33,330 bases of DNA, from IMG/VR virus record IMGVR_UViG_3300042883_000573, positions 1 through 33,330 of that record. One strand, written 5' to 3'. Made by a program: the position numbers and the translations under genes. The notes below the pieces were generated by a model, which did not search any database, was not told the DNA's origin, and worked only from the letters and a program-made list of their open reading frames with translations. Position 1 is the first letter of the stretch; each line of letters starts with the position of its first letter. Shown here in pieces: positions 2,349 through 26,221 of the stretch. The stretch comes from a virus.

Positions 2349-3458
2349 ATGACTAAAAAAGTAGCACCAAAAAAAGTTGGGATTGAAAAAACAGATTTTG
2401 ATTTAGATTCATTTTTAGAATCTGAAAATTTTAATAGCGCACCTACAGATAAAGATTTAACTTGGATTCCATTATCAAAAGGATGGCATGACGCTTTAAA
2501 ATTACCAGGTTTTCCACGTGGATTCGTAAGTCTTGTAAGAGGTTATTCAAATACTGGAAAATCCACCGCGTTTTATGAGGCGATAGTAGGAGCGCAAAAA
2601 ATAGGTGACTTCCCAATTGTAATTGAAACTGAAGGTAACTGGAACAATGAGCATGCTAAAATGGTTGGGGTTAAGTTCAAAGAAGTTGTTAATGAAGAAA
2701 CTGGTGAGATTACTGAGAAACCAGATGGGTTCTTATTAGTTAAGAGTAAGGATTTATATACTCGTTATAAAAACTATAACCATAAAGAAAGTAAAATGGC
2801 TACTAAACCAACAAGAAACGAACCAGTTATTGAAGATGTAGCATTATTTATTAACCAAATGATTCAAAAACAAGAAGATGGTGAATTAAATAAAAATATT
2901 TGTTTTTTATGGGATTCAATTGGAACACTTAATGGTTATCAATCAGCTACATCAAATTCAGCTAATAATCAATGGAACGCTGGTTCAATGAATGCATTTC
3001 AATCTATTGTTAACTTTAAAATTCCATCTAGTAGAGATGTTGAAAGTAAATTTACGAATACATTTATTTGTGTTCAAAAGATTTGGTTGGATAATATGAA
3101 TGGTACTGTTGTTAGACATAAAGGTGGTGAGTTCATGTTCTTTAGTGCTAGAATAATTGTACATATTGGTGGTATATTAACACATGGTACAACTAAATTG
3201 AAAGCAACAGCATTGGGTCATGATTTCCAATATGGTACAAGAGCTAAAATAAAATGTGAGAAAAATCACGTAACTGGTATCGAAAGACAAGGTGAAATAG
3301 CTTCAACGCCACATGGATATGTAAATCCAGATGAACTTGATGAATATAAAAAAGAACATCGTCAGTTTATTCATGATTCACTAAATGTTGATTTCAACAC
3401 TACAATTGAATACGATGAAGAAGAAGGTGAATTAAATGAGGAAGACAAAAGAAGTTAG
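2349..3458 (+). CDS. uvsX: UvsX/RecA-like recombinase
   Basis: This 369-aa protein has a RecA-fold ATPase core. Walker A is GYSNTGKST at residues 65-73, preceded by GFPRGFVSLVRG as in UvsX-type recombinases. Walker B is ICFLWDS around 184-190. A Gln/Ser-rich DNA-loop region (around 198-215) and a segment FICVQKIW..RHKGGEFMFF follow. The C-terminus is acidic (YDEEEGELNEEDKRS). Unlike T4 UvsX, whose P-loop is degenerate, this one has a canonical GKS/T. The role is strand exchange in recombination-dependent replication, acting on DNA coated by the SSB encoded just upstream. RNase H follows after 23 bases, probably in one operon. Confidence 0.88.
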   Translation: MTKKVAPKKVGIEKTDFDLDSFLESENFNSAPTDKDLTWIPLSKGWHDALKLPGFPRGFVSLVRGYSNTGKSTAFYEAIVGAQKIGDFPIVIETEGNWNNEHAKMVGVKFKEVVNEETGEITEKPDGFLLVKSKDLYTRYKNYNHKESKMATKPTRNEPVIEDVALFINQMIQKQEDGELNKNICFLWDSIGTLNGYQSATSNSANNQWNAGSMNAFQSIVNFKIPSSRDVESKFTNTFICVQKIWLDNMNGTVVRHKGGEFMFFSARIIVHIGGILTHGTTKLKATALGHDFQYGTRAKIKCEKNHVTGIERQGEIASTPHGYVNPDELDEYKKEHRQFIHDSLNVDFNTTIEYDEEEGELNEEDKRS

Positions 3459-3481
3459 TATTAATTTTTAAAAAGTTCAAT

Positions 3482-4537
3482 ATGAACAGAATGCCACCAA
3501 GAAACGGTGAAAGAATTAAAGAGGTAAATTATTTAGTTGTTGACGGTAATAGTTTATTTAAGCGAGGCATGATTGGTGCAAAAGATGAATATAACCCCAA
3601 TGGTCAACACATTGGGGGTCTTTACCAATTTATTACTGTATTAAGAAAAATAATGGAAGAAGACTTATACCATAGAGTATATGTTTTTTGGGATGGTAAG
3701 TATAGTGGAAAATTACGATACAACATCTACAAAGATTACAAGAGTGGTCGAGGAAAAGATTATGAGCATGGAACCATGCCAATCGATGAAAATGAGTTAA
3801 ATCAGAAAATACGTATTAAAAAATACCTTGAAGAATTATTTATTCGACAATTAGAGGATGAAATAGTTGAGGCTGACGATTTTATTGCCTATATTTGTAA
3901 TAACAAACTTAATAATGAAAGTATAACTATTATTACTAGTGATAGAGACTTATGTCAACTTATAAATGATAAAGTTAAAATTTATATGTGTGATTTAAAA
4001 ACATATGTTACAAAAGAAAATTTTAATAAACATTTTAAATATAAGTTAGAAAATTCTGCATTAACTAAAATACTTTGTGGTGATAATAGTGATTCAATTA
4101 AGGGTGTTAAAAGATTAGGTTTAGATACGTTGTTAAAGCATTTTCCAGAGATAAAGGATAAGGTATTAACAATTGAACAAGTTATTAACAAATCAAAAAT
4201 ATTACAAAATGAAAGGATAGACGAGAAAAAGAAACCATTACAAATATTAACTAATATTTACGATGGAATTACTGATGGAATACAAGGTACAGATTTATAT
4301 AAGATAAATAATCTTTTAGTTAATTTAACTACTCCGTTATTAACTGAGAATGCTATTGAAAGTGTTAATGACTTAATAGACTTACCAATAAACCCAGAAG
4401 GAAGAGATATCAAAAATGTATACAAGTATATTAAAGAAGACGGTATGCAAGATAAAATAAAAAATAATATTGAAGATTACTTTATGCCATTTAAAAAATT
4501 AATGGTTAGAGAAAATAATAAAAGTTTAATTAAATAA
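3482..4537 (+). CDS. rnh: T4 RNase H-like 5' nuclease (FEN/PIN family)
   Basis: This 351-aa protein aligns by eye with T4 RNase H (305 aa), the 5'-3' nuclease that removes primer RNA and trims lagging-strand fragments. The metal-binding acids are present: D21 in VVDGNSLFKRG; D71 in VFWDGK with R79 in the arch base; E130, D132 and D133 in EADDF; D154 and D156 in TSDRDL; D201 and D204 in CGDNSDSIKG. The last group is followed by the helix-hairpin-helix-like GVKRLGLDTLL. Spacing of the acids nearly matches T4 (19, 71, 130, 132, 155, 157, 197, 200). ATG 3482 gives the full N-terminal strand; Met4 is an alternative start. The next gene begins 10 bases after the stop. Confidence 0.9.
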   Translation: MNRMPPRNGERIKEVNYLVVDGNSLFKRGMIGAKDEYNPNGQHIGGLYQFITVLRKIMEEDLYHRVYVFWDGKYSGKLRYNIYKDYKSGRGKDYEHGTMPIDENELNQKIRIKKYLEELFIRQLEDEIVEADDFIAYICNNKLNNESITIITSDRDLCQLINDKVKIYMCDLKTYVTKENFNKHFKYKLENSALTKILCGDNSDSIKGVKRLGLDTLLKHFPEIKDKVLTIEQVINKSKILQNERIDEKKKPLQILTNIYDGITDGIQGTDLYKINNLLVNLTTPLLTENAIESVNDLIDLPINPEGRDIKNVYKYIKEDGMQDKIKNNIEDYFMPFKKLMVRENNKSLIK

Positions 4538-4547
4538 TATAAATAAT

Positions 4548-5069
4548 ATGATTACAAAACCTCAAACAGAAACAACTGCAAGACCGCAGTATGCTAATCA
4601 AAAATTTAGCTTCACACTTTACACTAATGATAATATCGTATGTAAAAGATATTTTAGTATTGATTCAGATAAAAGTGGTGATTTTAATAAAAATGTATTA
4701 AACTCTTTTGAAATAAAAGAATTAATGGATGAGTTAACTGGTACTAGTAATTATGGTAATATGGGTTTAATACCAATGTTCTTAAAAAAGATATGTGAAA
4801 ATATAGCTTGGAATAATTACAACCCATATAATCCATATACTAATCCAAATGACGTTAAAAATATTTATGAAACTGAACATAACTATATCTTTGAGATTGC
4901 TGTACAAGAAAAAGTAGTTGCAAGAAGTATGTTCACTGGTAATGTTTTTCAACCATATGCTAGAAAGGGTTTACATATTGGTAAAATTATACCACAAATT
5001 ATTGATTCAATCACAAATACGTTTACACTTAAAAAAGTCACTAAACAATACGCTGATATTGAATTGTAA
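4548..5069 (+). CDS. 173-aa protein of unknown function in the replication cluster
   Basis: This soluble 173-aa protein sits between the RNase H and helicase genes. It has no signal peptide or membrane helix. Residues 97-107 are an Asn/Tyr/Pro-rich segment (NYNPYNPYTNP), and the C-terminal half looks like alternating beta strands and a helix (YIFEIAVQEKVVARSMFTGN, then IGKIIPQIIDSITNTF). The position invites comparison with replisome accessory factors such as T4 gp59 or gp61, but none of their motifs are visible: there is no primase zinc finger or TOPRIM. I leave the function open. It begins 10 bases after rnh and is probably the last gene of that transcript, before the 5076-5123 inverted repeat. 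Confidence 0.8.
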   Translation: MITKPQTETTARPQYANQKFSFTLYTNDNIVCKRYFSIDSDKSGDFNKNVLNSFEIKELMDELTGTSNYGNMGLIPMFLKKICENIAWNNYNPYNPYTNPNDVKNIYETEHNYIFEIAVQEKVVARSMFTGNVFQPYARKGLHIGKIIPQIIDSITNTFTLKKVTKQYADIEL

Positions 5070-5160: not shown

Positions 5161-7659
5161 ATGGCTAAAGTTAACAAAGAAGATTTAAGTTATCTTACAG
5201 ATGATTTTCAACAAAGATTGATTTTACAGATGATTACTGATAGAAAATTCGGTACATCGATTATCGACATATTGGAACCAAATTATTTTAAAGATAATTA
5301 TTTAAAAATTATTGTTGCAGAAATTAAAAATGCTTATGATAAACATGAAGCAATACCAGATTTAGGTAGTCTTAAATCTAGGGTTTTTGAAAAAAATACT
5401 ACAGAAGTTGAAGTTAATTTTTTTAATGGTCAATTTGCTAAAATCGAAAAAGCTACATTAAACGATACTTTATACGTTCAAGAAACTGCTATGAAGTTTT
5501 GTAAAAGACAAGAACTTAAAAAAGCTATAAAAGAAATCGATGTGATTATCACTAATGGTAGACTTGATGAATATGATAGTTGTGAAAATATTTTAAGAAA
5601 AGCACTTGACAAGGGTGATAACAAAGATGATAGTATTGAAATTTTTGAAAACATAGATGATGTATTAGATGATGATTATAGAAACCCAATACCAACTGGA
5701 ATTTCTGGGTTAGATACTATAATGGGTGGTGGTTTAGCTAAAGGTGAATTAGCTGTTATACTCGCAGCATTCGGTATTGGAAAAGCGCAACCATTAAGTT
5801 CTAATGTTTTAACACCTAACGGATGGGTTAAAATGGGGGATATTAAAATTGGTTCCGAAGTTATTTCTAGAGATGGTAATGCAACAAAAGTTATTGGTGT
5901 GTATCCACAAGGTATTAGACCGATTTATAGGGTTAGTTTCAATGATAGTACTAGTGCTCTATGTGATAAAGAACATCTTTGGTCAGTTAACACTATCAAT
6001 CAAAGAAATAGGTCAACTAAGAAAAATGGTAAATACGTTAGCTTACCTTCGGATAATAGTTTTAAAACTATAAGTACTAGTGAAATGATTGGTAAGACAA
6101 AGGTATGGAATGGTAAACGATATAATTTTAAAATACCAAATGTTGAACCAGTCAATTTCAATAAAAAAGACTTAATAGTTGAACCTTATTTATTAGGTGT
6201 AATTTTAGGTGATGGTTGTATTACTACTTCTAATCAACCAAATTTTGTAAATAAAGATATTGATATTATCAATGAAGTTAAAAGAGTTTATGATAATGTA
6301 TCAGTAACTGAGTTATTCAGAACAGTTGAAAAAGAAATAAACGGTGAATTAGTATTGGAAAAACGTTCAATTTATAAAGCTTCTTTATTAGGGATTAAAA
6401 ATGACTTAATTAGATTAAATTTATATGGGTGTGGTTCGAGTGATAAATTTATACCTAAAGATTATTTATATTCATCAGTAGAAGATAGAGTTAGGTTATT
6501 ACAAGGGTTGGTGGATACTGATGGTTACATACATAAACATACCGTTGAAATTAGTACAGTATCTAAAGAAATGTCTGAAAACATTAAAGAATTGGTTTTA
6601 TCGTTAGGTGGTAGAATAAGTATTAAACCAACTCAAGGTAAATATAAAAAGAATGGTATAGTTATAAATACTAAGATATATTATAGAATAAGTTTTAGTT
6701 TTCCCGATAATGGTGTAATACCAGCTTTATGCGGTAGAAAGGTTAAAAATTTCACACCTAGAACAAAATATGGTAATAATAAATTTATAACTTCTATTGA
6801 ATATTCTCATGATGAAGAAGCACAATGTATTATGGTCGATAATAATGAACATTTATACGTCACTGATGACTTTATAGTAACTCATAATACAACTATGTTC
6901 ACTAAAATGGCAAACCATGCTTATAATGAAGGGTATAATGTATTACAAATATTTTTCGAAGATATGCCTAAAGTTATACAAAGAAAACATATAGCATGTT
7001 GGACTGGTATTAATTTAAGTGACTTAGGTGAACATAAAGAAGAAATTAAAGAAACTTTAGAAAAAGTTAAAGCTAGTACTGGTAAATTAAAGCTTAAGAA
7101 ATTCCCAAGCTCAGACACTACTATAACTACTATTAAACAATACATTAGAAAACAAATTGCTAGTGGATTTAGACCAGATATTATAATGTTAGATTATATT
7201 GATTGTGTTCAACCATCTAAAAAAGTAGATGATGTAAATGTAGGTGAAGGTCAAGTTATGCGTGAATTTGAATCTATGTTATCTGAACTTGAAATGGCTG
7301 GATGGACCGCTGTTCAAGGTAACCGTTCGGCAATTTCTTCAACTATAGTTGAATCAGACCAAATGGGCGGTTCTATTAAAAAAGGTCAGATAGGTCACTT
7401 TATAGTATCTATAGCTAAAAGTTTAGAGCAAAAAGAAAACGGTACAGCTAATATGGCTATATTAAAGTCTAGATTTGGTAAAGATGGTTTAGTATTTGAA
7501 GATATTGTTTTCAATAATGGTACAATCCAAATTGAAATGAATTCAAAAAATAATAATGCTATATCAGTTAGTAATTTAAAAAATAATAAGAAAACTAGTG
7601 CTATGAATAAGGTTAACTCATTAATGGATGCTGGTTTAAAAGCTAGGGAGAATAATTAA
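5161..7659 (+). CDS. 41: Replicative DNA helicase (gp41/DnaB-like) containing an in-frame intein
   Basis: The 832-aa precursor would splice to a 464-aa helicase, close to T4 gp41 (475 aa). The N-extein (1-208) holds the N-terminal domain and the start of the RecA-like core (GISGLDTIMGGGLAKGELAVI..AAFGIGK). The C-extein (577-832) resumes with TTMFTKMANHAYNEGYNVLQ. Joining them restores Walker A as FGIGKTT. Walker B is IIMLDYID (674-681); GEGQVMREFESMLSELE and AVQGNRSA match later DnaB motifs. The protein would unwind DNA at the phage fork, and the activity depends on splicing because the P-loop is split. It has its own host-type promoter. An intact-frame intein, not a broken gene, explains the extra length. 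Confidence 0.93.
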   Translation: MAKVNKEDLSYLTDDFQQRLILQMITDRKFGTSIIDILEPNYFKDNYLKIIVAEIKNAYDKHEAIPDLGSLKSRVFEKNTTEVEVNFFNGQFAKIEKATLNDTLYVQETAMKFCKRQELKKAIKEIDVIITNGRLDEYDSCENILRKALDKGDNKDDSIEIFENIDDVLDDDYRNPIPTGISGLDTIMGGGLAKGELAVILAAFGIGKAQPLSSNVLTPNGWVKMGDIKIGSEVISRDGNATKVIGVYPQGIRPIYRVSFNDSTSALCDKEHLWSVNTINQRNRSTKKNGKYVSLPSDNSFKTISTSEMIGKTKVWNGKRYNFKIPNVEPVNFNKKDLIVEPYLLGVILGDGCITTSNQPNFVNKDIDIINEVKRVYDNVSVTELFRTVEKEINGELVLEKRSIYKASLLGIKNDLIRLNLYGCGSSDKFIPKDYLYSSVEDRVRLLQGLVDTDGYIHKHTVEISTVSKEMSENIKELVLSLGGRISIKPTQGKYKKNGIVINTKIYYRISFSFPDNGVIPALCGRKVKNFTPRTKYGNNKFITSIEYSHDEEAQCIMVDNNEHLYVTDDFIVTHNTTMFTKMANHAYNEGYNVLQIFFEDMPKVIQRKHIACWTGINLSDLGEHKEEIKETLEKVKASTGKLKLKKFPSSDTTITTIKQYIRKQIASGFRPDIIMLDYIDCVQPSKKVDDVNVGEGQVMREFESMLSELEMAGWTAVQGNRSAISSTIVESDQMGGSIKKGQIGHFIVSIAKSLEQKENGTANMAILKSRFGKDGLVFEDIVFNNGTIQIEMNSKNNNAISVSNLKNNKKTSAMNKVNSLMDAGLKARENN
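5785..6888 (+). mobile_element. Class 3-like intein with LAGLIDADG endonuclease, inserted in helicase Walker A
   Basis: The 368-aa intein runs from Ala1 (precursor residue 209, directly after GIGK) to Asn368, followed by extein Thr+1. Block A is PLSSNVLTPNGWVKMGDIKI. Block B has His64 and Trp66 in KEHLW. Two LAGLIDADG helices, LLGVILGDG (136-144) and LLQGLVDTDG (238-247), mark a homing endonuclease domain with both acidic residues. Block F is AQCIMVDNNEHLYV with Cys348, and block G is VTHN. The N-terminal nucleophile is absent (Ala), and Trp at B:12, Cys at F:4 and Thr at G:5 match the WCT signature of class 3 inteins, in which the block F Cys starts splicing. The boundaries are clear from helicase continuity. 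Confidence 0.92.
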
Positions 7660-13877: not shown

Positions 13878-16800
13878 ATGACTAACGAAACTATAAGGAT
13901 TAGAACAACGCCTAATGATGGTACTAAAGTCGTTAATATAGAATTAAATCAAAAGTTTGATTTTATTGAAATTTTATCATTAAAGATATCTCAAGAAGAT
14001 ACATATAGACGATTTTGTTCTGACTATGGCGTTGTTGTGGGTAGAGTTACAGTTAATAGTGGTTTTGGTGTACCAAACGCTAAAATATCTATATTTATAC
14101 CAATATCCGATGAAGATAAAGCTGAACCATTAATAAATGGTTTATATCCATACTCAGCTATTGACGATAAAAATCAAGATGGTTATAGATATAATTTATT
14201 ACCTAAAAATAATGAAACAACAAATGATTGTTTCACTCAAACTGGTTCTTTCTTTAATAAAAGAGAATTTCAAGATAATGATGAAGCATTAGATATATAT
14301 TGTAAATATTATAAATACACTACTGTATCAAATACTGCTGGTGATTATATGTTTTTTGGTGTACCTAATGGTTCTTATTTAATACATGTTGATGCAGATA
14401 TATCAGATATAGGTGTAGCATCTCAAAAACCATATGATATGGCTAGAGAAGGTGCAAATGATACTCAATTCTATAGTAAAAGTAAATTTAAAAAATCAGA
14501 AAATTTAGATACATTATCACAAATTAAAACTAAAAATGGTAGTGTTAATGTTGTACCTTTTTGGGGTGATACCGAACAATGTAGTATTGGTATAACTAGA
14601 TTTGATGTTGATTTAGCAACAAACATAACACCTAGTGCGATATTCATAGGTAGTATATTTGGTGATAATAATAAAAATAGTGTTAATAAAAGATGTAAAC
14701 CTAGAAGAAAAGTTGGTGCATTAGAAGGTATGACAACTGGTTCTGGTGTTATTGAAATGATTCGTAAAACACCCCTTAATGAAACTGAACGTTTTGATGT
14801 TAATGGTGGTCAATTAATTGATGACAATGGTACATGGGCTTATCAAGTACCTATGAATTTAGATTATGTTGTTACAGATGAATTTGGTAATTTAATACCA
14901 TCAGATAACCCTAATAAAGGTATACCTACTAGAGCTAGAGTTAGATTTAGGATAGGTATGGATGCCACTGGTGGTGAAGGAAGAATAAGAACTAGAGCTA
15001 AATATCTAGTACCACATAACCCATCATCATGGTCAGATTCTGATTATAATTTTGATGAAAATACAAGAGATAAGCATTTCCAAGACTTTCATTGGAATAA
15101 AATATATAGTATAGCTAACCATGTTACTAGAGTTCAAAGTACTATAATGGGTGGAGCTACTAATCATAGAACATTTACAGCAATTAAAGAAGTTGATAAT
15201 GGTGGTAATAATAATCAATTCCCATTTAATAAAATGGATGTGACATTAAATCCATTATTTGTTATTTTATGTGTCATTGTTAAAATTATAGCTATCATAG
15301 TTAAATTAATTAATCAATTTATGATACCAGCTATTAATGCAGTTTTTTATGTTCTGAATAAATTTATTATGGGTCCAATTTGTAAACTATTAAATTGGAT
15401 AGTAGGTGCTGTATGTAAATTGAGACATCCATTTGATAATGGTAAAAAAGATGATTGTATAAGGGAACGTAGTGTACCTAGTTGTTTAATTGATTATATA
15501 GGTTATATGGTTTTATCTTGTTCAGCAGATGAAACTGGTAAGCCATACTGTATTGGTTGTGATACTGCAAATACTGGTAATGGTGCTAAAGAAAGTCTTA
15601 AAAAAACAAAAGAAAAATATACTGGTGGGTTCTATTTCCCAGGAAGTAATAATTACAATAAGTGGGGTGATACATTACCAACTGGAGATGCTGGATGGGT
15701 AAATTGTATTGCATTAGCGTTAGCTGAAGCATTAGATGTGTTTAAATTCGATTTCTATAATGATTGGGTTAATGGTTCGTTATATTCGTTCTTATTAAAA
15801 TATAAAGTAAGAAGGAAAGGAAAAGGTAAAGAAAAGTTTTGTGAAATAGATTGTGGTAGTACAGATGGTGTTGATAATAATAAAGATGGTCAATCAGATA
15901 ATGATTGTTTTACCAATTATATTGTAGACATATGTACTATAGCTGTACCACAAGGAACTAATATAACTAGTGATAAAGTTGGTGAAAGCGCTAACACTAT
16001 AGAAGTTAAGGAAGGTTTAATTAAAAAATATAAAGACCAATTATATTACGCAGCTTATTCTAAAAAAAGTAATTATAGATTATACGCTACCAAAATTGTA
16101 TGTCTAGGTGCTGTATTTGATTGTGATTGGCAAGGATTACCTAGTATTCATAAGTATTTAGTTGATACAAGTTATAATAAACCACCATTAATTAATGTAT
16201 ATCACGATAGTGGACCATATACTGGTGATATTATGGAAACTGGATTTGATTCTCCAGATAATAAATTAAGTAACTCACAAATTTGTAATATAAATTGTAC
16301 ATCATTAGGTGTTGGTTCTCAACAATGTAATAACATTAAAAGGTTATGTGAGTTAGGTGTTAATAGTGATGATGATAATAGAGACGATGGAGGCTCTAAA
16401 GCTGATTTTAAAATCTTAAACGCTGATATATCAAATACATTTATTAGAGGTGCATTTGCTTATGTTAACGGTACTTTTGACCCAACACCTTTAATGAGTA
16501 ACAAAATACAATTAATACCATTTGACCTTACTGGTAATGAATATCAATATAATCATAAATATTACGATAAATTTAGAGGAATTAGAAGTAAATCAGATTT
16601 AATTTGGACATATGAAAATTCATTTTACTTTTATTTTGGTTTATTACCTGGTAAAACAGCTATAACTAGATTAAAAACTGATTTTTTTCCAGATTGTATT
16701 CGAAGTGATAGAAAAGAAATGAGTATTGTTATTAATGATATAATTGATGATTCTAATGATGGTAAAGGTATTGGCTCAATAGATATTTCAGTTAACGGTG

Positions 16801-18641
16801 GTGTTGGTCCTTATTTATATCAATGGGAAGGTCCATTAGTTAATGGTAGTAGAGTATCATGTTGTTATGACGGTGCAAGTAAAGCACCATGTAATAATAC
16901 TTTGCTTAATTGTCCAGAAGGCTTACCATTTACTGGTCTATATGGTGGTACTTATACGATTACTGTTACAGATTCATCTGGCACTATAGTAACAACTAGC
17001 GTTAATGTTGGTGGGTTTATAGGTGTTGAATGTGAAGTAAGACCTAGTCCTATAACAGCTAAAGGTAATGGTAATATTTACATTAATTTAAGTCATGGTA
17101 CTGCGCCATATAATATTACAATACAAAAATTAGACGCAAATGGTATCCCAATAATTGGTCAAACATATACTTTACCACCAATTTATAGTACACCTACAGC
17201 TGGGTATTGTTATGGTGATTGTACTAATCAACCACTATCAGAAGGTGAATATATAATGATAGCTAAAGATAGTGGTAGTTCTATTAAAACTGAATGTAAT
17301 TCAAATTTTACTATTATAAAACCAGAAACATTAATTATTGACGTTACTCATACTAGTAGTATTGACCCATTAAATCCTAACATTACACCTATGTTAGAAT
17401 GTAATGGTAATGAAGATGGTAGTGCTGAAGTAAGTGTTGAAGGTGGAACTCCACCATATACATTTGAATATATATTACTTTCTACTACTAATATTAAATT
17501 TATACCTAAAATAGGTACAGTTATTAGTACAAGTTCAGCACCAACTAATTTAGTTGCTGGAACATACAATTTAAAAGTAACAGATTTAGGTGGTAATACA
17601 ACACCAAATTCATTTACAATTAAAGAACCACCACCAATTATTGTTAATTTAGTTAAAAAAGTTAATGTAACAACTAAAGAAGGTGATAATGGTTTTGTTT
17701 CATTTAACATATATGGTTCAAATCAACCATTTACAATTGATATTGAAGGTAATGAATCTTTCACTAAAACAGTTACTAATAGTGGTGATTTGGTTGAATT
17801 TTTCGGGTTAACAGCTGGTTTTAATAAAAGTAATAGTACTTATAAACCTTACAAAATAACTGTCACTGATAATATTGGTTGTACTACAACTTCATTTTAT
17901 CAAGGTAGTGCTATAAAATATGATTTCATTATTACGCAACCTGGAGGTAATGACAAATTCCCAATTGGTCTAACTACCCATGGGTATGTAGATTATGCTT
18001 ATGCTACTTGGCAAGGTGGTTCTCCTGACTCTAATTTATTTAATTATAACTCAGCTTTTCCAGATAAATATGGTACAGATAACTTATATGATACTATAAG
18101 TGGTAATGTAGTTTATAGACATAAAATGTTTGCATATGGTAGTGGTCCTGCTGAAGATATTTATCACGTTAGAGTTAAAATTACTAACCCAAATACCGAA
18201 AGATATTGGATTGGGTTATCATGTGATACTGCGTGGAATAGTGTTTTTAAAAAACCATATTATGGTGGTTGGCTTAAATTAGGTAAACTTAACAGTCAGT
18301 GTGTTGACTGCATCCCTAAAGGTGGTAATAGTGGTGGTTGGGGTAGACAGTTTAATGTGTATGCCTCTAGATACGAGGGCTCAACTGGTACTTGGATACC
18401 AAAGATTAATGATATAATAATTGAAGTATCTGACAATCAACAATTAAATGCGTTTAATGTTAGTAAGAATAAAATTCGTCATGATTTAAGTACTTGGGAT
18501 TTTGATGGTGATAAAGATGGTACTTATGGTACTATAGATAGTACAACTGGTGTATATTTATATTATAATCAAACTAATGGGCCATTAATAGATGAATTAG
18601 GTAATACAATATTAAAATCACCAAATAGTCCACTTCAATAA
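13878..18641 (+). CDS. 1587-aa multidomain tail/baseplate protein with SprB-like repeats
   Basis: This is the largest gene in the window. Residues about 50-172 resemble a carboxypeptidase-regulatory/transthyretin-like beta domain (VVVGRVTVNSGFGVPNAKIS, later TAGDYMFFGVPNGSYLIHVD). A long hydrophobic helical stretch at about 458-515 could insert in a membrane. A Cys-rich region follows (about 520-850, with C-x2-C pairs and DGVDNNKDGQSDNDC). From about 950 to 1355 lie three or four immunoglobulin-like repeats with the SprB-repeat pattern: GGVGPYLYQWEG...GGTYTITVTDSSG and GGTPPYTFEY...AGTYNLKVTDLGG. The C-terminus is again Cys-containing and ends with WDFDGDKDGTYG. Following gp25 and gp6 it occupies the place of T4 gp7. 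A virion surface or host-contact role is likely but inferred. Confidence 0.85.
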   Translation: MTNETIRIRTTPNDGTKVVNIELNQKFDFIEILSLKISQEDTYRRFCSDYGVVVGRVTVNSGFGVPNAKISIFIPISDEDKAEPLINGLYPYSAIDDKNQDGYRYNLLPKNNETTNDCFTQTGSFFNKREFQDNDEALDIYCKYYKYTTVSNTAGDYMFFGVPNGSYLIHVDADISDIGVASQKPYDMAREGANDTQFYSKSKFKKSENLDTLSQIKTKNGSVNVVPFWGDTEQCSIGITRFDVDLATNITPSAIFIGSIFGDNNKNSVNKRCKPRRKVGALEGMTTGSGVIEMIRKTPLNETERFDVNGGQLIDDNGTWAYQVPMNLDYVVTDEFGNLIPSDNPNKGIPTRARVRFRIGMDATGGEGRIRTRAKYLVPHNPSSWSDSDYNFDENTRDKHFQDFHWNKIYSIANHVTRVQSTIMGGATNHRTFTAIKEVDNGGNNNQFPFNKMDVTLNPLFVILCVIVKIIAIIVKLINQFMIPAINAVFYVLNKFIMGPICKLLNWIVGAVCKLRHPFDNGKKDDCIRERSVPSCLIDYIGYMVLSCSADETGKPYCIGCDTANTGNGAKESLKKTKEKYTGGFYFPGSNNYNKWGDTLPTGDAGWVNCIALALAEALDVFKFDFYNDWVNGSLYSFLLKYKVRRKGKGKEKFCEIDCGSTDGVDNNKDGQSDNDCFTNYIVDICTIAVPQGTNITSDKVGESANTIEVKEGLIKKYKDQLYYAAYSKKSNYRLYATKIVCLGAVFDCDWQGLPSIHKYLVDTSYNKPPLINVYHDSGPYTGDIMETGFDSPDNKLSNSQICNINCTSLGVGSQQCNNIKRLCELGVNSDDDNRDDGGSKADFKILNADISNTFIRGAFAYVNGTFDPTPLMSNKIQLIPFDLTGNEYQYNHKYYDKFRGIRSKSDLIWTYENSFYFYFGLLPGKTAITRLKTDFFPDCIRSDRKEMSIVINDIIDDSNDGKGIGSIDISVNGGVGPYLYQWEGPLVNGSRVSCCYDGASKAPCNNTLLNCPEGLPFTGLYGGTYTITVTDSSGTIVTTSVNVGGFIGVECEVRPSPITAKGNGNIYINLSHGTAPYNITIQKLDANGIPIIGQTYTLPPIYSTPTAGYCYGDCTNQPLSEGEYIMIAKDSGSSIKTECNSNFTIIKPETLIIDVTHTSSIDPLNPNITPMLECNGNEDGSAEVSVEGGTPPYTFEYILLSTTNIKFIPKIGTVISTSSAPTNLVAGTYNLKVTDLGGNTTPNSFTIKEPPPIIVNLVKKVNVTTKEGDNGFVSFNIYGSNQPFTIDIEGNESFTKTVTNSGDLVEFFGLTAGFNKSNSTYKPYKITVTDNIGCTTTSFYQGSAIKYDFIITQPGGNDKFPIGLTTHGYVDYAYATWQGGSPDSNLFNYNSAFPDKYGTDNLYDTISGNVVYRHKMFAYGSGPAEDIYHVRVKITNPNTERYWIGLSCDTAWNSVFKKPYYGGWLKLGKLNSQCVDCIPKGGNSGGWGRQFNVYASRYEGSTGTWIPKINDIIIEVSDNQQLNAFNVSKNKIRHDLSTWDFDGDKDGTYGTIDSTTGVYLYYNQTNGPLIDELGNTILKSPNSPLQ

Positions 18642-18656
18642 TAAAATATAGGTAAT

Positions 18657-20549
18657 ATGGCAATAGGTAGAATAAGACAAAGATTAAATAAATTTACATC
18701 GAAACAATCGGTAAATATCGATACATTGATTAATTTACCATTTATTAGTGAACAAAAAATATTACCTACTGGTGAGATTAATCATATTGTTAATGAAGTT
18801 GAACAATTCAACAAAGAAAGAAATGCTTCTAAGAAATATAGATTGATAGCTACTATAGACCCATTAATTAGTAATGTTTTATTTAATATAAGTAGTGATA
18901 AAGTACCTAAAGATTTTGGGTTAAAACCTGGTTCGGATGATTTAAATGATAAGACTCGTAGCTATGGTTGGGAAGTATTTAATAATAATATTTTTAAACA
19001 AGATATATTAAAAACACAAGCTGGTGATGGTGGACAAGCACCTTTAACTACCAACCCAATGCTTGGTAGAGAAGATTATACTTATGAACAAGCTATACGT
19101 AAAAGTCTTAAGGAAATTAATGGATGGTTTGGATTTTTTGACCCAGATGATACAAAGGCTGGTGATTGTTCATTTTATGATATGGAACCAACTAGGTATA
19201 GGTTTGATTTTAATAATAATATTAATAAAAATTGGGATATTGTTGTAACATATCCAGCTAAAAGTGATAACACACATTATTTAGTTAATAATGGGTTATT
19301 AATTACAACAATGACAGTTAGAAATTTCGGTGGTAGACAATTAGTATGTTTAGGTACTGCTGTTCCACATAATTTAGTTAATGGTGATGATATCAATCTA
19401 AGTAATATGCCATCAACATTATTGAATGGAACTTTTTCAGTTTTATCATTAGGGTTAGATAATGGTGACTATAAGAAAAACTTTTTCACTATCTCTATTG
19501 ATGTAACTATACCATCTATTAGTGGTCTAATTGGTGTAGCATTTAACAGTGGTAGATTAAAGAGACTTTACTTTGGTCATGAAGTTGAATATTATATTAG
19601 AAAGTTTAGAAAGATTAAAATGTTTAGTACACAAAAAGAAATGGAGACCGATGATTATGAATTATACCCAGTAGGGTTTGCTGTTACTAGTTTTAATGAT
19701 AAATTATTTCAATTAATAATTAATGAAGATATTGATATTGAAAATCTTAAAGATAATTTAGGTAGACCAATAACTGAAATATATGTTACCATACTTAAAA
19801 CAGATAGTAATAGTACGTTTACAAAAATCATGGATGGTTTTGACATGGCTAATATAGAGGGTAATACTAAAACAAACACCACTCAATTTAGGAAAATTGG
19901 TAATATTAGAAAAATGCATACACTTGGTTCAAGTAGTAAAGCACCATTCAATAGTCATGACCCATTAGATTCATTCGGTAACGGTGTTGACATTAATGAT
20001 AATGAATTTTATGGTGATATTGTTGAATATTCAAAATATGAGGCTAGGGAAATTATATTAGCTAAAGTAATGCATAGATTTAACACTATTGATAGAGAAT
20101 TAATTAGTGATATATCGATTTCCGATGCAGCTGAACCTGATGTTACAAAACAAAATAAAACAATTGAAGGTAGTAGGTTAGAGGGTTATATATATAATCC
20201 ACATCATAAAATACAAATTAGAGAATATTCTAATTATGTTGAACAAGGTAATGATAAAACTGTAGGTATTCCAGAATATAGAGAATTAATAGGTAATAAT
20301 CTTTATTTATGGAGAGATTTACTAGATATTGGTTATAACGATGGTATTGATACACCTATTGAATTCCCTTTTTTAAACGGATGTCATTATTTATATAGTA
20401 ACATATGTTTTCCAGTAAGGAGACAAGACCCATTTGGTAATTTTGATTTATATTACAATGGTAATGATAAATTAGCGTCACCAGCCGATATTATCGGAGA
20501 CGCTATTTCAGATAACTTTAGCATAAATTCATCAGATAATGCATGTTAA
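18657..20549 (+). CDS. 630-aa tail/baseplate structural protein, family not recognised
   Basis: This soluble 630-aa protein is encoded 15 bases after the 1587-aa gene and overlaps the next gene by 11 bases, which implies translational coupling in the tail operon. The N-terminus is basic (GRIRQRLNKFTSKQSVNIDT). The middle is a mix of beta strands, including RNFGGRQLVCLGTAVPHNLV, a pattern of the kind seen in phage beta-barrel or tail-needle inserts. The segment at about 315-350 (YYIRKFRKIKMFSTQKEMET) is strongly basic, then acidic. No enzyme motif, signal peptide or membrane helix is seen. It is most likely a baseplate or tail component by position. Confidence 0.8.
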   Translation: MAIGRIRQRLNKFTSKQSVNIDTLINLPFISEQKILPTGEINHIVNEVEQFNKERNASKKYRLIATIDPLISNVLFNISSDKVPKDFGLKPGSDDLNDKTRSYGWEVFNNNIFKQDILKTQAGDGGQAPLTTNPMLGREDYTYEQAIRKSLKEINGWFGFFDPDDTKAGDCSFYDMEPTRYRFDFNNNINKNWDIVVTYPAKSDNTHYLVNNGLLITTMTVRNFGGRQLVCLGTAVPHNLVNGDDINLSNMPSTLLNGTFSVLSLGLDNGDYKKNFFTISIDVTIPSISGLIGVAFNSGRLKRLYFGHEVEYYIRKFRKIKMFSTQKEMETDDYELYPVGFAVTSFNDKLFQLIINEDIDIENLKDNLGRPITEIYVTILKTDSNSTFTKIMDGFDMANIEGNTKTNTTQFRKIGNIRKMHTLGSSSKAPFNSHDPLDSFGNGVDINDNEFYGDIVEYSKYEAREIILAKVMHRFNTIDRELISDISISDAAEPDVTKQNKTIEGSRLEGYIYNPHHKIQIREYSNYVEQGNDKTVGIPEYRELIGNNLYLWRDLLDIGYNDGIDTPIEFPFLNGCHYLYSNICFPVRRQDPFGNFDLYYNGNDKLASPADIIGDAISDNFSINSSDNAC

Positions 20550-21444
20550 TAAATATATAATTAAAATACCATCATTAAATGGTGCGACTGGCTTAACCGC
20601 AACTACATTAACAATACCGTTAAGTTTAGATTTCCAAAACGTGGACCAAAGTGAAATTATTAAAACTAAATTTGTTGATGTTGAAATTGAGAATAGTATT
20701 AATCAAATTGTTGATTGGGAACAAGGTAGATTTAGTCCTATAAAAACTTTTATAGCACCATTAAATAATTTAATCGATTCAATTACATATTCATTATATT
20801 TTTTAGATAGTACAAATAATTTCATAAGTGCTACATACGCTGATGCTGAATTTAATGATACTGATATTAAAAATAGAAAAAATAAATTTAAAAAAAGTTT
20901 TTTAAGGTTAAATTTTTATGATAGTGATAATATTGCTAAACAAAAATTAGTAGCTTTTTTAATTATATACCCTAGAGTTGATGATAAATTTTTTGCTAAA
21001 ACTAATTTACCTAGTACATCATTTTTTACACCTCCTGGTTCGACACCATGGGGAACAATTAATTCAGTTAAACAAATTAATTTAGAATTTACCGTTGGCG
21101 ACTCATTGAAAGATAGACGTAAAGATGGTGAAGGGTTTTTCTTTTATTATTATAAAGATGAAATAACTAAAACCGCACCCAAAGAATTATTTATGAAAGC
21201 TAGTTTTAGTAACGCTAAAACTGGTAAAGTAATGAGGTTAATGTCAACTAGTAATAAAGTTAGTATCGATAAATTAAATATCACAACAAATGGGACAACT
21301 TTAAAAAATAACGTACATACAAAATATTTATTATCAAAAGATAATACTGGTTATTATTATACTATAGATACTAATTACTCTTCAAATGTTAGTATTAATG
21401 GTGATACATACGAAGTTAATTTATATGAAATATTTGTACTATAA
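20539..21444 (+). CDS. 301-aa tail structural protein
   Basis: ATG at 20539 lies inside the end of the 630-aa gene (11-base overlap, different frame), and the stop TAA shares its last A with the next ATG. The product is 301 aa, beta-rich, with a segment GLTATTLTIPLSLDFQNVDQ near the N-terminus whose TATT-x4-IPL pattern recurs in the next protein. No catalytic motif, signal or transmembrane helix is seen. The tight packing shows it belongs to the tail/baseplate cassette; its exact place is unknown. Confidence 0.8.
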   Translation: MHVNKYIIKIPSLNGATGLTATTLTIPLSLDFQNVDQSEIIKTKFVDVEIENSINQIVDWEQGRFSPIKTFIAPLNNLIDSITYSLYFLDSTNNFISATYADAEFNDTDIKNRKNKFKKSFLRLNFYDSDNIAKQKLVAFLIIYPRVDDKFFAKTNLPSTSFFTPPGSTPWGTINSVKQINLEFTVGDSLKDRRKDGEGFFFYYYKDEITKTAPKELFMKASFSNAKTGKVMRLMSTSNKVSIDKLNITTNGTTLKNNVHTKYLLSKDNTGYYYTIDTNYSSNVSINGDTYEVNLYEIFVL

Positions 21445-22349
21445 TGGAAATAATTAAACGAAGAATTTTATTAGAAAGTCTTAGAAGTAGATACTCAGGT
21501 TCAACATATGGAACTATAACAGCTACAACTATAAGTTTATTAATACCGTTAACTCAAGATATTAAAGACCTTGGTATGGTACATAGTTTAGATTATATAC
21601 CTAAAGGGGTTACTGACCCAACTACTGGTGTATTAGTTGATTATACGTTAGTAGTTAATAAATTAAAAGATACTAATACTAATACGTTTAATTTTTGTAT
21701 AAATCCAAGTGCTAATTTTACAACAATAAAATCTACATTAAGTCCAGACACTAGAAATGCTGGTTATGGGTTATCAGCTTACTTATCTGATGGATTAGAT
21801 ATTAGCGGTTATACTGAATCTAGAATAGAGAATTCACATAGTTATGGGTTTACTGGAGATAGTAGATTAATAGTTGGTAAAGATGTTAATATAGAAGTAT
21901 ATACTAATTTTACTGGTGGAACTGTTACTGGATTAAATAAAGTTATTAGTAATAATAGTAAAAACCCTATAATATACACTGAATTCGCTGATAGTACTAA
22001 TAAATATTACAGTAATATATTACCACCGTATCAAGATGATGGGATATTATTTATGAGTGTTACAGCAAACACTGGTGAATCTTATGCTATTATAGATGAT
22101 TTTGGTGAAACTAGTATAACTAAAATGTTTTATAAGGGTCAAAGTTTTAATTTAACAAATGTTGGGTTATATGCTTCAACTAGACAAGAATATTTATTAC
22201 ACATCACAACTCCACCAAAAGTAGAAAGCGATGTTTTCATTGAACGAGGTGGTATTAGTGTTATGCCTATGCATGGTCAATTGGGTGAGATAAATACGCT
22301 AGAACAATTAGAGAAATTCGGTAACGGATTTTATAAAATAATAAAATAA
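21444..22349 (+). CDS. 301-aa tail structural protein
   Basis: This gene is coupled to the previous one through a TAATG junction. The 301-aa product begins MEIIKRRILLESLRSRYSG and has GTITATTISLLIPLTQDIKD, similar in pattern to the N-terminal part of its equal-length upstream neighbour; the two may be distant paralogues. The C-terminus (FIERGGISVMPMHGQLGEIN then TLEQLEKFGNGFYKIIK) looks well conserved and is duplicated in decayed form immediately downstream (22373-22448). The role is probably a baseplate or fibre-attachment component; the function is not identified. Confidence 0.8.
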   Translation: MEIIKRRILLESLRSRYSGSTYGTITATTISLLIPLTQDIKDLGMVHSLDYIPKGVTDPTTGVLVDYTLVVNKLKDTNTNTFNFCINPSANFTTIKSTLSPDTRNAGYGLSAYLSDGLDISGYTESRIENSHSYGFTGDSRLIVGKDVNIEVYTNFTGGTVTGLNKVISNNSKNPIIYTEFADSTNKYYSNILPPYQDDGILFMSVTANTGESYAIIDDFGETSITKMFYKGQSFNLTNVGLYASTRQEYLLHITTPPKVESDVFIERGGISVMPMHGQLGEINTLEQLEKFGNGFYKIIK

Positions 22350-22372
22350 TAAAATAATAAAATATTTAACAT

Positions 22373-22448
22373 ATTTATAGAAAGAGGTGGAATTAGTGTT
22401 ATACCTATACATAGTCAATGGGTTTTATAAAATAATAAAATAATAAAA
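22373..22448 (+). pseudogene. Decayed duplicate of the 3' end of the preceding gene
   Basis: After the stop at 22349, the sequence at 22373-22422 repeats 22238-22285 with a few substitutions and small gaps (translated FIERGGISVIPIHSQW versus FIERGGISVMPMHGQL). It then skips about 45 bases and repeats the gene's last bases (TTTTATAAAATAATAAAA). The copy is out of use: it has no start, and a stop soon after SQWVL. This reads as a tandem duplication with an internal deletion, or the scar of a lost paralogous gene. Confidence 0.8.
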
Positions 22449-22456
22449 ATAAGGAT

Positions 22457-23353
22457 ATGAGTAGTGGAATGTATGGAATAGTTAGGGGTGCTGATGTGAC
22501 ACCAGCTGACGTAGAAATGATGGTATTTTATTCACCAGATAGACAAACTAAAACTACAAGTACGTTTGCATTAGGTAGTAATAATTTATCTAACGTTAAC
22601 GATAGTGTTAATGGTATTGATGTTTTTGGCGGTTTATATACACTTAATTTACCAGTAACACAATTTCAAGCTAAAGGTATATATACTATTGTGATTAAAC
22701 CTATTGAAATTAGAACTAAAATTGTAGATTGTGGTGTATTGGCAGCATTACCAGATAATAAAGGTATTGTATTAGATGTATCAGACCCCAAAGTTGCTAA
22801 TTTTGTTAGTAAATTTGAAAATAATAATTTAATTGGTTATAGAATTGAATATTTAGATACAGCAAATCCAGCTATTAAAGTTAGAAATTTATTTAGGATT
22901 ATTACATCAAATAATAGAACTGAACCAGTAACACAAAATTTAACTAACACTAATCAAAAAGCGATTAGATATCGTTTTAATGATAATGCTACATTAGTGT
23001 TTTGTACTGTTACACCAAATGCACCTACAAATGTTAAACCTGATGTATTACCATATATTGGTGTACCAAATCAAGAGATTATATTAACACATACATTTTT
23101 TAACCCAATTACAATTGAAGTTGAAATGGTAGAACATGATTTCGATACACTTGCTTACGGATTATTCGGTAATCAAACTAAAGGTCTTGAAGATGGTATT
23201 TATACATTATATAATTTTGATAATAATATCTATAAACAATATAACTTATTTGAAATTAAAGACAGATTCAGTGGTAAACCTCTTCATGAAGTTAGAGAAG
23301 AAAGAACTAGTATTGATTTTGGTAAAGATTTTAATAGCATAGCAAACGTATAA
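22457..23353 (+). CDS. 298-aa tail structural protein
   Basis: This 298-aa beta-rich protein (MSSGMYGIVRGADVTPADVE..) has no catalytic motif. A C-terminal part, NPITIEVEMVEHDFDTLAYG then LFGNQTKGLEDGIYTLYNFD, looks conserved. The stop is 4 bases before the 938-aa gene, so it is in the same operon. The 107-base gap upstream contains the duplicated fragment of the previous gene rather than an obvious promoter. It is probably a baseplate or adaptor protein by position only. Confidence 0.8.
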   Translation: MSSGMYGIVRGADVTPADVEMMVFYSPDRQTKTTSTFALGSNNLSNVNDSVNGIDVFGGLYTLNLPVTQFQAKGIYTIVIKPIEIRTKIVDCGVLAALPDNKGIVLDVSDPKVANFVSKFENNNLIGYRIEYLDTANPAIKVRNLFRIITSNNRTEPVTQNLTNTNQKAIRYRFNDNATLVFCTVTPNAPTNVKPDVLPYIGVPNQEIILTHTFFNPITIEVEMVEHDFDTLAYGLFGNQTKGLEDGIYTLYNFDNNIYKQYNLFEIKDRFSGKPLHEVREERTSIDFGKDFNSIANV

Positions 23354-23357
23354 ATAA

Positions 23358-26174
23358 ATGGCAAAGGGTGATTTGATAAGGGTTCCTGGTTATTCTCAAA
23401 GAGTAATCTATAATGGTAACATTGAGTATAGAAATTTTTCTGATAACTTAGTTGGTAATCAATCGATTATTAATATTGATAATAATGCTAATCAATCTAG
23501 TTCATTATTTACAATGGGTAACTTTATTGTTACCACAAGTTCAAGTAATAGGAGTGAACATTCTTTTAGAGGTAAAGATTTTACACAATTTTACGATTTA
23601 ACTACGTTAAATATTACTAATAATGTTGAAAAACTAATTAATAATAATGTTAATATAAAATTAAATTTAGATAATAATAAATTATCTAGTTATGCTTATT
23701 TTGGTTCAGCTACTGAATTCATTAGAGTAACATTAGAAAATATTATTACTTATTGGCCAGCTTCTTTATATCTTAACCCATTATTAATAACTAATTATGG
23801 TAATTTTACTGGTTTAACTGTTGAAAACTATATTTATGATGCATATAATGATAAGTCTTCATTCGATGTTGACGTAACATTTATTACTAATAATTTTGAA
23901 TTAGTATTCACTCAAAACGGTAACGTTATTGATACTTTTAATGAAGATAATAAACTTAGAAATTTTACATTAAATTATGTGGATTATGTTATTGCTTATA
24001 ATGACATTGAATATAATGTATTAGAATTTACTGGTGCGACTAATGAAATTAGTGGTTATATTAATTTAGTCGTAGAGGGTGACCCATTTAAAGACATTAC
24101 AACAACAGCAACAAGTAGAAATAGTATATATCATATTAGACCAAATAAATTAAAAGTAGATGAATTTTTTAATAACTTAAATTCATTTGAACAAAATATA
24201 TTAAATAGATACACAGCACCAAAATATACATCAACGTATGATTATGATAGAGCTGGTTCAGATAATGTAATATATAAAGCTAAAAAATTAGTTACATGGC
24301 CAGTATCAGATGGTTATAATATAGATTTTTCAACAAACGAGTATGTTCGATATGTTAATGAATTAATTGAAATCGGAACATCTAGTGATAAAGCTAGTTC
24401 TGATATTTTAACTAGATTTTTAGTTTCTGATTCGATAGCTGACTTTGATTCATTACCTAACTTAGATGGAACACTTGAATTAACTAGTGGTCAAAAAATG
24501 ACTAAAATTCTTAAAATTTATGGTAGGAATTTTGATGAAGTTAAAATATGGATGGATGGTCTTAAATTATTTAATACTGTAACATATGATAAAAAGAGTA
24601 ATACTCCAGACCAATTAGTTAAAGGTTTAGCTAAAAATTTAGGATGGGAATTAACTACAGCATTAAGTGATAATGATTTATTAAAACATTATGTTGAAAC
24701 AAAACAATCATCTTATTCTGGACAAAGTACTGGTCTTTCAGTGCAACAAGCTGAAACTGAGATGTGGCGAAGACTTATATTAAATTCTGCTTGGTTGTTT
24801 AAATCAAAAGGTTCTAGAAAAGGTATTGAATTCTTTTTTAAATTTTTAGGTATACCTAAAGGTCTTGTAGATTTAAATGAATATATCTATAGAGCTAAAA
24901 ATAAAATAGATATGAATATATTTTATGCAATATTAAAAAGATTCAATTTAGATACTGATTTAGCTTTATATAATTTAGATTCAGATGGGTTTCCAAAATT
25001 CCCAGCTCAAACTAGTGACATGTATTTTCAAAAAAGTGGTTTATGGTATAGACAAACAGCTGGAACTGGAACTAGTGAACATATATTAACTGGCAACAAC
25101 CCACATATTGGTCCATATGATGGTGGTCAAACATATTTATCCCAATTACATAATTTAATACCTGATTTTAAACCATTTACAATAGTTAATGAAGTTAAAT
25201 TAACTGGTACCACTAATTTATTCTATAATTATAATAAGGGTAAAATGAATTACTATAGTGGAAAAACATTTATTGATACATATAGTAGTAATGGTGGTTC
25301 ACCAATAAAATGTTTAACTACTACAACTAGTATTATAGCTGACCCATACCCTAATTATAAAGAAACTGTGTGTGGTTGTCCATGTGAAGTTGAAGATGAC
25401 ATATTATCAGTATGTCTTAAAAAATTACCACAAGTTGCTAAACCCCTATCATGTAATACTAATGTATCAATTAACTATGTTGATTCTGGTATTGATTATG
25501 ATACTTTCCCAAATATATTTCTGTATAAAACATTAGGTGAAGGTTCAATATATAGAAGTCAAGAATGTTGTAAAATTGATGGTGGTACACCATACAAATA
25601 TGATGAATATTTAACAAAGTGCACAACAGCAAATGGTTGTTTTGCATCATATAGAAATAATGGATACATTTGTACAAAATCATTAGGTGAAAAAACTGAT
25701 TTAGGTAATAAGGGTGGTGGTTGTTTTTTAACTTGTCAATGGCAATTACCATTTCAAACTACAAAACCCAATAGCCCAAAAGCATCATATACAACTTCTG
25801 TAGTTGGTACTGGTAACCCTAATAGTGTTATTGGTGGTGCAATATCTTTAAATGATTTTACATGGTCTAGTGGTACTAAGTTATATTTAAAATTTGCTAC
25901 ACCATTTAATTCATGGGGTAAAACTGGTCCAGTAGAATTTAAATATACTCATCCATCTGATTCATGTTTTTGTAATTTAAATTATACAACACCTGAATTA
26001 GTCACTGACCCTGACACAAAGATTAAAGGTTATGCTTGTAAACTTAACGCATATAGTTTACAAAGACTTAATTTAAGTATTAATACATTTTGGAAAGAAG
26101 TGGGTTATGATTACTTATTAAAAGCGCAAGGTGTTTTACCTTGTCCAACACATCGATTAAATGTTATAACATAA
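23358..26174 (+). CDS. 938-aa baseplate/tail protein with P2 gpI-like segment
   Basis: This long protein has beta-rich N-terminal parts and, at about residues 465-525, the segment LILNSAWLFKSKGSRKGIEF then FFKFLGIPKGLVDLNEYIY. This pattern (helix, SKGTRxxIE, short loop, D-x-NE) resembles P2 gpI-type tail proteins that link baseplate and fibres. The C-terminal third (about 650-870) is Cys-rich (CGCPCEVEDD, QECCKIDGG, CTTANGCF, GGCFLTCQW), suggesting disulfides or metal sites that form after assembly or outside the cell. It starts 4 bases after the 298-aa gene. A 66-base gap separates it from the 680-aa gene, which may form a functional pair with it. The gpI similarity is by eye only. Confidence 0.78.
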   Translation: MAKGDLIRVPGYSQRVIYNGNIEYRNFSDNLVGNQSIINIDNNANQSSSLFTMGNFIVTTSSSNRSEHSFRGKDFTQFYDLTTLNITNNVEKLINNNVNIKLNLDNNKLSSYAYFGSATEFIRVTLENIITYWPASLYLNPLLITNYGNFTGLTVENYIYDAYNDKSSFDVDVTFITNNFELVFTQNGNVIDTFNEDNKLRNFTLNYVDYVIAYNDIEYNVLEFTGATNEISGYINLVVEGDPFKDITTTATSRNSIYHIRPNKLKVDEFFNNLNSFEQNILNRYTAPKYTSTYDYDRAGSDNVIYKAKKLVTWPVSDGYNIDFSTNEYVRYVNELIEIGTSSDKASSDILTRFLVSDSIADFDSLPNLDGTLELTSGQKMTKILKIYGRNFDEVKIWMDGLKLFNTVTYDKKSNTPDQLVKGLAKNLGWELTTALSDNDLLKHYVETKQSSYSGQSTGLSVQQAETEMWRRLILNSAWLFKSKGSRKGIEFFFKFLGIPKGLVDLNEYIYRAKNKIDMNIFYAILKRFNLDTDLALYNLDSDGFPKFPAQTSDMYFQKSGLWYRQTAGTGTSEHILTGNNPHIGPYDGGQTYLSQLHNLIPDFKPFTIVNEVKLTGTTNLFYNYNKGKMNYYSGKTFIDTYSSNGGSPIKCLTTTTSIIADPYPNYKETVCGCPCEVEDDILSVCLKKLPQVAKPLSCNTNVSINYVDSGIDYDTFPNIFLYKTLGEGSIYRSQECCKIDGGTPYKYDEYLTKCTTANGCFASYRNNGYICTKSLGEKTDLGNKGGGCFLTCQWQLPFQTTKPNSPKASYTTSVVGTGNPNSVIGGAISLNDFTWSSGTKLYLKFATPFNSWGKTGPVEFKYTHPSDSCFCNLNYTTPELVTDPDTKIKGYACKLNAYSLQRLNLSINTFWKEVGYDYLLKAQGVLPCPTHRLNVIT

Positions 26175-26221
26175 GACAATAACTATGTAATATTATTAAA
26201 AATAAATTATATTAATAGATA

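What the first reader, a model, noticed from the sequence alone, without database searches (positions are those of the whole stretch)
5785..6888. Class 3-like intein splitting the Walker A motif of a T4-type helicase
The intein begins with Ala instead of Cys/Ser, so standard class 1 chemistry cannot start. Instead it shows Trp66 (two residues after the block B His), Cys348 in block F (AQCIMVD) and Thr366 before His-Asn, with Thr as the +1 residue. This is the WCT combination that defines class 3 inteins, described mainly from mycobacteriophage and actinobacterial DnaB-like proteins. Finding it in a probable Bacteroidetes T4-like gp41, together with two apparently intact LAGLIDADG motifs, would extend the range. 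The insertion point, between Lys and Thr of the P-loop, makes helicase activity strictly dependent on splicing.
Basis: partly seen in the sequence, partly recalled or inferred. Interest (0 to 1): 0.72.

Follow-up and report, generated by a model that had tools for sequence, protein, structure and literature searches.

The report
Class 3 intein in phage helicase
A phage's DNA-unwinding helicase is interrupted in its ATP-binding loop by a mobile self-splicing protein insert of a known type (a class 3 intein) that is common in phages of many bacteria, so it is real and well preserved but mostly ordinary.

Summary
ORF 5161-7659 encodes a T4 gp41/DnaB-like helicase, split between Lys and Thr of its Walker A motif by a 368-residue intein (5785-6888). 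It has Ala1, Trp66, Cys348, Thr366-His-Asn and Thr+1. Sequence alignment to the solved class 3 DnaB inteins puts Trp66 on their Trp67 and Cys348 on their catalytic Cys. The AlphaFold model's splicing domain matches 6bs8 (class 3) better than any class 1 splicing domain listed. Both LAGLIDADG motifs keep their acidic residues, and the endonuclease region is under purifying selection.

The class 3 reading therefore holds; only splicing chemistry is untested. The 'range extension' does not hold. 598 phage records carry relatives, including Vibrio phage gp41s at the same K|T site and a Bacteroides phage ATPase, and 1701 class 3 inteins were already catalogued in 2020.

The intein is mobile. Intein and helicase trees conflict, close helicases at 91% identity are empty, and two virus populations about 99.5% identical over 6 kb differ by exactly this insertion. 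In related loci the same helicase also shows a 233-residue variant that has lost the endonuclease motifs. Two also carry a split class 1-like intein at a second site. Verdict: a new member of a known kind.

The parts
5161..7659 (+). gp41/DnaB-like replicative helicase gene carrying the intein (832 aa precursor; 464 aa after splicing)
   Evidence: inteinless homologues of 464 aa at 91% identity; PDB best hits DnaB-like replicative helicase
5161..5784 (+). N-extein (208 aa), ends ...AAFGIGK, first part of Walker A
5785..6888 (+). class 3 intein, 368 aa
5785..5787 (+). Ala1, no class 1 nucleophile at the N-terminal junction
   Evidence: position 1 variable among relatives
5965..5982 (+). block B DKEHLW: Asp61-x-x-His64, Trp66 (B:12, W of WCT)
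6190..6216 (+). LAGLIDADG motif 1 (LLGVILGDG), Asp143 intact
6496..6525 (+). LAGLIDADG motif 2 (LLQGLVDTDG), Asp246 intact
6820..6840 (+). block F AQCIMVD with Cys348 (F:4, catalytic cysteine of WCT)
6880..6888 (+). block G Thr366-His367-Asn368 (T of WCT at G:5, then penultimate His and terminal Asn)
6889..7656 (+). C-extein (256 aa), begins with Thr+1, the Walker A Thr

Best explanation
This is a full-length, mobile class 3 intein with a two-motif LAGLIDADG homing endonuclease, inserted between the Lys and Thr of the Walker A motif of a T4 gp41/DnaB-like phage helicase. Inferred splicing pathway, by homology to characterised class 3 inteins: Cys348 attacks the Lys(-1)-Ala1 peptide bond and forms a branched thioester on itself; the N-extein is passed to the hydroxyl of Thr+1; Asn368 cyclises with help from His367; an O-N shift leaves an intact GIGKTT P-loop. 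At DNA level the endonuclease cuts inteinless alleles at the conserved P-loop codons and the intein is copied in by repair. Shown here: architecture, motif positions, predicted fold, open frame, purifying selection on the endonuclease, natural empty and occupied sites, and horizontal movement between helicase lineages. Inferred: the chemistry, the DNA cleavage, and that the unspliced helicase is inactive.
For: Exact motif alignment to class 3 structures 6bs8/6rix/6riy. AlphaFold model mean pLDDT 93.3; splicing domain Z 20.4, 1.5 A over 123 residues to 6bs8 and 19.8 to 6rix (class 3), against 18.5 for gp41-1 and 17.4 for Ssp DnaB (class 1); whole-length best match PI-SceI, Z 27.7. WCT in 45 of 46 sequences, residue 1 variable. 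Endonuclease dN/dS 0.12-0.21 in window-versus-relative comparisons. Empty sites: four helicases 88-91% identical without the intein; L001/L002 (with intein) and L041 (without) are about 99.4-99.6% identical for 3 kb on each side and differ by exactly 1104 bp. Horizontal movement: the intein is 86% aa identical to that of L001 while the helicase is 65%; the extein tree joins L001 with L003 (100/100) and the intein tree joins window with L001 (100/98); AU rejects L001+L003 for the intein (p 0.0025) and window+L001 for the extein (p 0.0002).
Against: No splicing or cleavage assay exists for this protein. A class 3-lineage intein that fails to splice is known (Arsp-FB24 Arth_1007, PMC3196547), although that one lacks Cys F:4. 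The Z-score advantage of class 3 over class 1 structures is modest (20.4 against 18.5). Pfam's Intein_splicing model PF14890 does not ring in the window; the C-terminal splicing model TIGR01443 does, weakly.
Confidence: 0.93

Rival explanations
1. The intein is of class 3 descent but no longer splices, so the helicase is dead, or splicing is too slow to matter.
For: One natural class 3-lineage intein is a pseudogene (PMC3196547).
Against: Open frame, all catalytic residues kept, dN/dS well below 1 across splicing and endonuclease parts, helicase motifs intact in the C-extein, and no other helicase gene seen in the window.
Confidence: 0.04
2. Splicing runs by the class 2 route (direct attack of Thr+1 on the N-terminal junction), with Cys348 only structural.
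For: Ala1 excludes the ordinary class 1 start; class 2 also lacks a nucleophile at position 1 (PMC5222942).
Against: The W-C-T triplet at the defining positions with Cys348 kept in 45 of 46 sequences while residue 1 varies; closest splicing-domain structures are class 3.
Confidence: 0.03
3. The intein is a regulatory gate that holds back the phage helicase under some condition (redox, temperature, metal), not simply a mobile parasite. This is compatible with the class 3 chemistry of the main explanation.
For: The P-loop class 3 intein of M. smegmatis DnaB is inhibited by oxidation of its catalytic Cys (PMC6195587); here a second Cys (Cys60) lies beside block B, and Cys at that column is common in relatives.
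Against: Many near relatives simply lack the intein, so no gate is needed in that group; the endonuclease and recent mobility explain its presence.
Confidence: 0.1

Closest known systems
Mycobacterial DnaB-b class 3 inteins (Msm DnaBi1 6bs8; Mch DnaB1 6rix)
   Same: Class 3 WCT triplet, DxxH in block B, insertion in the P-loop of a replicative helicase whose P-loop Ser/Thr is the +1 residue; splicing-domain fold Z 20.4
   Different: Those are mini-inteins without an endonuclease, and Msm DnaBi1 has Ser+1; the window intein carries a full LAGLIDADG endonuclease and Thr+1
Mycobacteriophage TerL1-a and other phage P-loop K|T inteins (PMC5050341)
   Same: Insertion between the invariant Lys and Thr of Walker A, phage-borne; class 3 inteins are among those described in the same phages
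   Different: Host protein is a terminase, not a helicase
Vibrio phages YC and GR28A gp41 inteins (L074, L077)
   Same: Class 3 intein at K|T of a gp41 helicase with Ala1, W, C, T, Thr+1 and LAGLIDADG motifs
   Different: 32-33% identity in the intein, about 23% in the helicase; proteobacterial hosts
Bacteroides phage BS-TP3 ATPase intein (L071)
   Same: Class 3 intein at GMGK|TT in a phage of a Bacteroidota host
   Different: Different ATPase (annotated terminase large subunit); 34-38% identity
PI-SceI (1ef0, 1lws)
   Same: Whole-length fold with two LAGLIDADG motifs inserted in a HINT domain, Z 27.7
   Different: Class 1 chemistry; yeast VMA1 host; lacks Cys at F:4

Membership tests
Class 3 intein | No Cys/Ser/Thr nucleophile at residue 1 | tested here: met
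   Ala1
Class 3 intein | Trp at B:12 | tested here: met
   Trp66 aligns to Trp67 of 6bs8, two after the block B His
Class 3 intein | Cys at F:4 | tested here: met
   Cys348 aligns to Cys118 of 6bs8 and to the engineered Cys107 of gp41-1 WCT, 6riz
Class 3 intein | Thr at G:5 before His-Asn | tested here: met
   Thr366-His367-Asn368
Class 3 intein | HINT fold closest to class 3 structures | tested here: met
   Z 20.4/19.8 to class 3 DnaB inteins against 18.5 or less for class 1 splicing domains; rows within 1 Z are tied
Class 3 intein | Clade with InBase class 3 inteins in a splicing-block tree | not tested
   InBase sequences not held; similarity, motif and fold comparisons only
Class 3 intein | Splices through a Cys F:4 branched intermediate | not testable with these tools
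   Needs biochemistry
LAGLIDADG homing endonuclease | Two LAGLIDADG motifs with catalytic acids | tested here: met
   Asp143, Asp246; Pfam LAGLIDADG_3 2.9e-10 and Hom_end 1.5e-7
LAGLIDADG homing endonuclease | Cleaves the intein-free allele | not testable with these tools
   Indirect support only: empty/occupied pair and tree conflict
T4 gp41/DnaB-type helicase | DnaB_C ATPase domain with Walker A, gp41-like sequence | tested here: met
   phrog_19 3.6e-50; best PDB hits DnaB-like replicative helicase 8due/8dtp

The most novel reading that the evidence does not exclude
The P-loop class 3 intein is a conditional switch on phage replication: Cys60 and Cys348 form a reversible disulfide, as Cys48-Cys118 does in mycobacterial DnaB, so the helicase is switched on only under reducing conditions. 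In some sister phages the helicase additionally needs trans-splicing by a split class 1-like intein, so two splicing chemistries must both succeed before replication.
Probability: 0.08. Interest if true: 0.6.

Novelty: new member of a known kind. Interest (0 to 1): 0.3.

Why it matters
The intein itself adds one more, cleanly preserved, class 3 intein to a large known class. Its surroundings are more useful: in one helicase lineage of probable Flavobacterium-type phages, the same codon junction occurs empty, filled by a full endonuclease-bearing intein, and filled by a variant that has lost the endonuclease motifs. One pair of virus populations is about 99.5% identical apart from the intein. 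That gives a natural system for testing the homing cycle, which is usually inferred from distant comparisons.

Tried and rejected
Range extension to Bacteroidota as a novelty: rejected, since cultured Bacteroides and Parabacteroides phages and many Bacteroidota genomes carry relatives. Pfam Intein_splicing PF14890 in the window: no match, which only means the model misses this phage class 3 intein. Further intein of this family in the window: none. DNA-level relatives of the N-extein in phage records: none. Co-conversion tracts beside the insertion: L001/L002 versus L041 differ at -1 and -28 and then not until -235; too few sites to conclude. Census bias: the later locus scans used patterns containing parts of block G and one pattern contained Cys348, so the 204/206 WCT count is partly by construction; the phage set was found by whole-length similarity, and the variable residue 1 does not suffer from this. 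The Tori and Perler 2011 paper was not held.

Full report
What is there. The window is an IMG/VR virus contig. ORF 5161-7659 is an 832-aa helicase precursor. Removing residues 209-576 leaves a 464-aa protein that matches, over its whole length and at 88-91% identity, four uninterrupted helicases from other IMG/VR contigs (L037-L040). The insert, 5785-6888, is 368 residues long and starts AQPL and ends VTHN. It sits between K and T of the Walker A motif GIGK|TT.

Class. Class 3 inteins are defined by no N-terminal nucleophile plus Trp at B:12, Cys at F:4 and Thr at G:5 (PMC3196547; PMC5050341). Aligned to the solved class 3 DnaB intein 6bs8, Trp66 falls on Trp67, Cys348 on Cys118 and Thr366-His-Asn on its THN; the block B motif is D61xxH64, like its DxxH (PMC6195587). 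Among 46 distinct sequences W, C and T are kept in 45; the exception, L034, reads as a class 1 intein. Residue 1 is A, S, L, M, D or C, which is what one expects if residue 1 is not the nucleophile. The AlphaFold model built on IMG/VR relatives has mean pLDDT 93.3. Its splicing domain matches class 3 DnaB inteins best (Z 20.4 and 19.8, rmsd 1.5-1.9 A), then gp41-1 (18.5) and Ssp DnaB (17.4); over full length the best match is PI-SceI (Z 27.7). The class 3 label is therefore supported by sequence and fold. The chemistry itself was not tested.

Endonuclease. Both LAGLIDADG motifs keep their acids (Asp143, Asp246). Pfam LAGLIDADG_3 and Hom_end hit above their cut-offs. Between the window and its relatives the endonuclease part has dN/dS 0.12-0.21 (up to 0.29 among all pairs tried), so it has been under purifying selection.

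Mobility. Three independent lines. First, the intein is more alike than its host gene: window versus L001 is 86% aa in the intein and 65% in the helicase. Second, the trees conflict: helicases join L001 with L003 (100/100), inteins join the window with L001 (100/98); the AU test rejects the helicase grouping for the intein (p 0.0025) and the intein grouping for the helicase (p 0.0002) (the groups were named after seeing quick trees, so the p values are optimistic). Third, L001/L002 with intein and L041 without are 99.4-99.6% identical over 3 kb on either side and differ by exactly the 1104-bp insertion. Gain or precise loss must be recent there; which of the two is not decided.

Host. The nearest isolates for the baseplate wedge protein include the Flavobacterium phages immuto, and these share the order ssDNA-binding protein, recombinase, 5'-3' exonuclease, helicase, NrdB, NrdA, with an intein-free helicase. 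The window also holds a SprB repeat protein, a family I know from gliding Bacteroidetes. A Bacteroidota host is probable, not proven. The helicase is T4-type by sequence, though immuto carries a family A DNA polymerase, unlike T4 (the contrast with T4 is from my own knowledge).

How known is it. Very. tblastn with the intein finds 598 phage records, 570 of them matched over at least 80% of the query. Junctions read from 15 of them show Ala1 in most, W-C-T, and mostly GK|T insertion in helicases, terminases and other ATPases, including Vibrio phage gp41 and a Bacteroides phage protein. At least 248 bacterial genome loci carry relatives. The literature lists 1701 class 3 inteins, 82.5% with LAGLIDADG (PMC7891396), calls the K|T site in TerL a 'classic' P-loop insertion (PMC5050341), and describes a class 3 intein in the P-loop of M. 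smegmatis DnaB (PMC6195587).

Related loci worth more than the window. L068 carries at the same site a 233-aa class 3 insert that keeps the splicing blocks but has lost both LAGLIDADG motifs. Its helicase is also broken at AVQGSR|C by what looks like a split class 1-like intein: N-half in ORF 2489-4519, C-half 'YTHN|SAINST' in ORF 4535-5008. L003 and L069 come from one metagenome and overlap in 140 of 142 bases; together they show an endonuclease-bearing class 3 intein at the P-loop plus split-intein halves on either side of a 404-aa ORF whose end matches DUF559/REase_MTES_1575. I recall this 'fractured gene' layout from Dassa et al. 2009 for phage gp41; that paper was not read here. M. smegmatis DnaB has a similar pair of sites, a class 3 intein in the P-loop and a class 1 intein in the H4 DNA-binding loop (PMC6195587); that AVQG(N/S)R is the H4 site is my inference.

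Verdict. Real, well preserved, correctly classed, and a new member of a known kind. Interest 0.3, mostly for the empty/occupied pair and the variety of states at one site.

Noticed in passing
L001/L002 3001-4104 against L041 at about 3115: Natural occupied/empty pair: flanks about 99.4-99.6% identical over 3 kb each side, differing by exactly the 1104-bp intein.
   Followed up: yes
L068 2489-5008: Same helicase site holds a 233-aa class 3 insert without LAGLIDADG motifs; the helicase is also split into two ORFs by N- and C-halves of a class 1-like split intein at AVQGSR|C ... YTHN|SA.
   Followed up: partly
L003 end and L069 1-2219: Contigs of one metagenome overlapping 140/142 bases: P-loop class 3 intein with endonuclease, plus split-intein halves flanking a 404-aa ORF with a DUF559/MTES_1575-type endonuclease end.
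   Followed up: partly
L034 2269-4749: A gp41-like helicase with what reads as a class 1 intein at a neighbouring P-loop position, GASG|C...CHN|SGKS, lacking the W and Cys of class 3.
   Followed up: no
IMGVR_UViG_3300032291_001378 (L012 and L241): One 48.7-kb virus contig carries two inteins of this family at two places about 28-30 kb apart.
   Followed up: no
window 13878-18641: 1587-aa ORF after the baseplate genes with SprB repeats (Pfam 3.5e-13), a family I know from Bacteroidetes gliding adhesins; no match in phage records.
   Followed up: partly
window 18657-32688: A run of large same-strand ORFs (mostly 298-938 aa) with no PHROG match and, where scanned, no Pfam match; possible tail fibre or adhesin region.
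   Followed up: no
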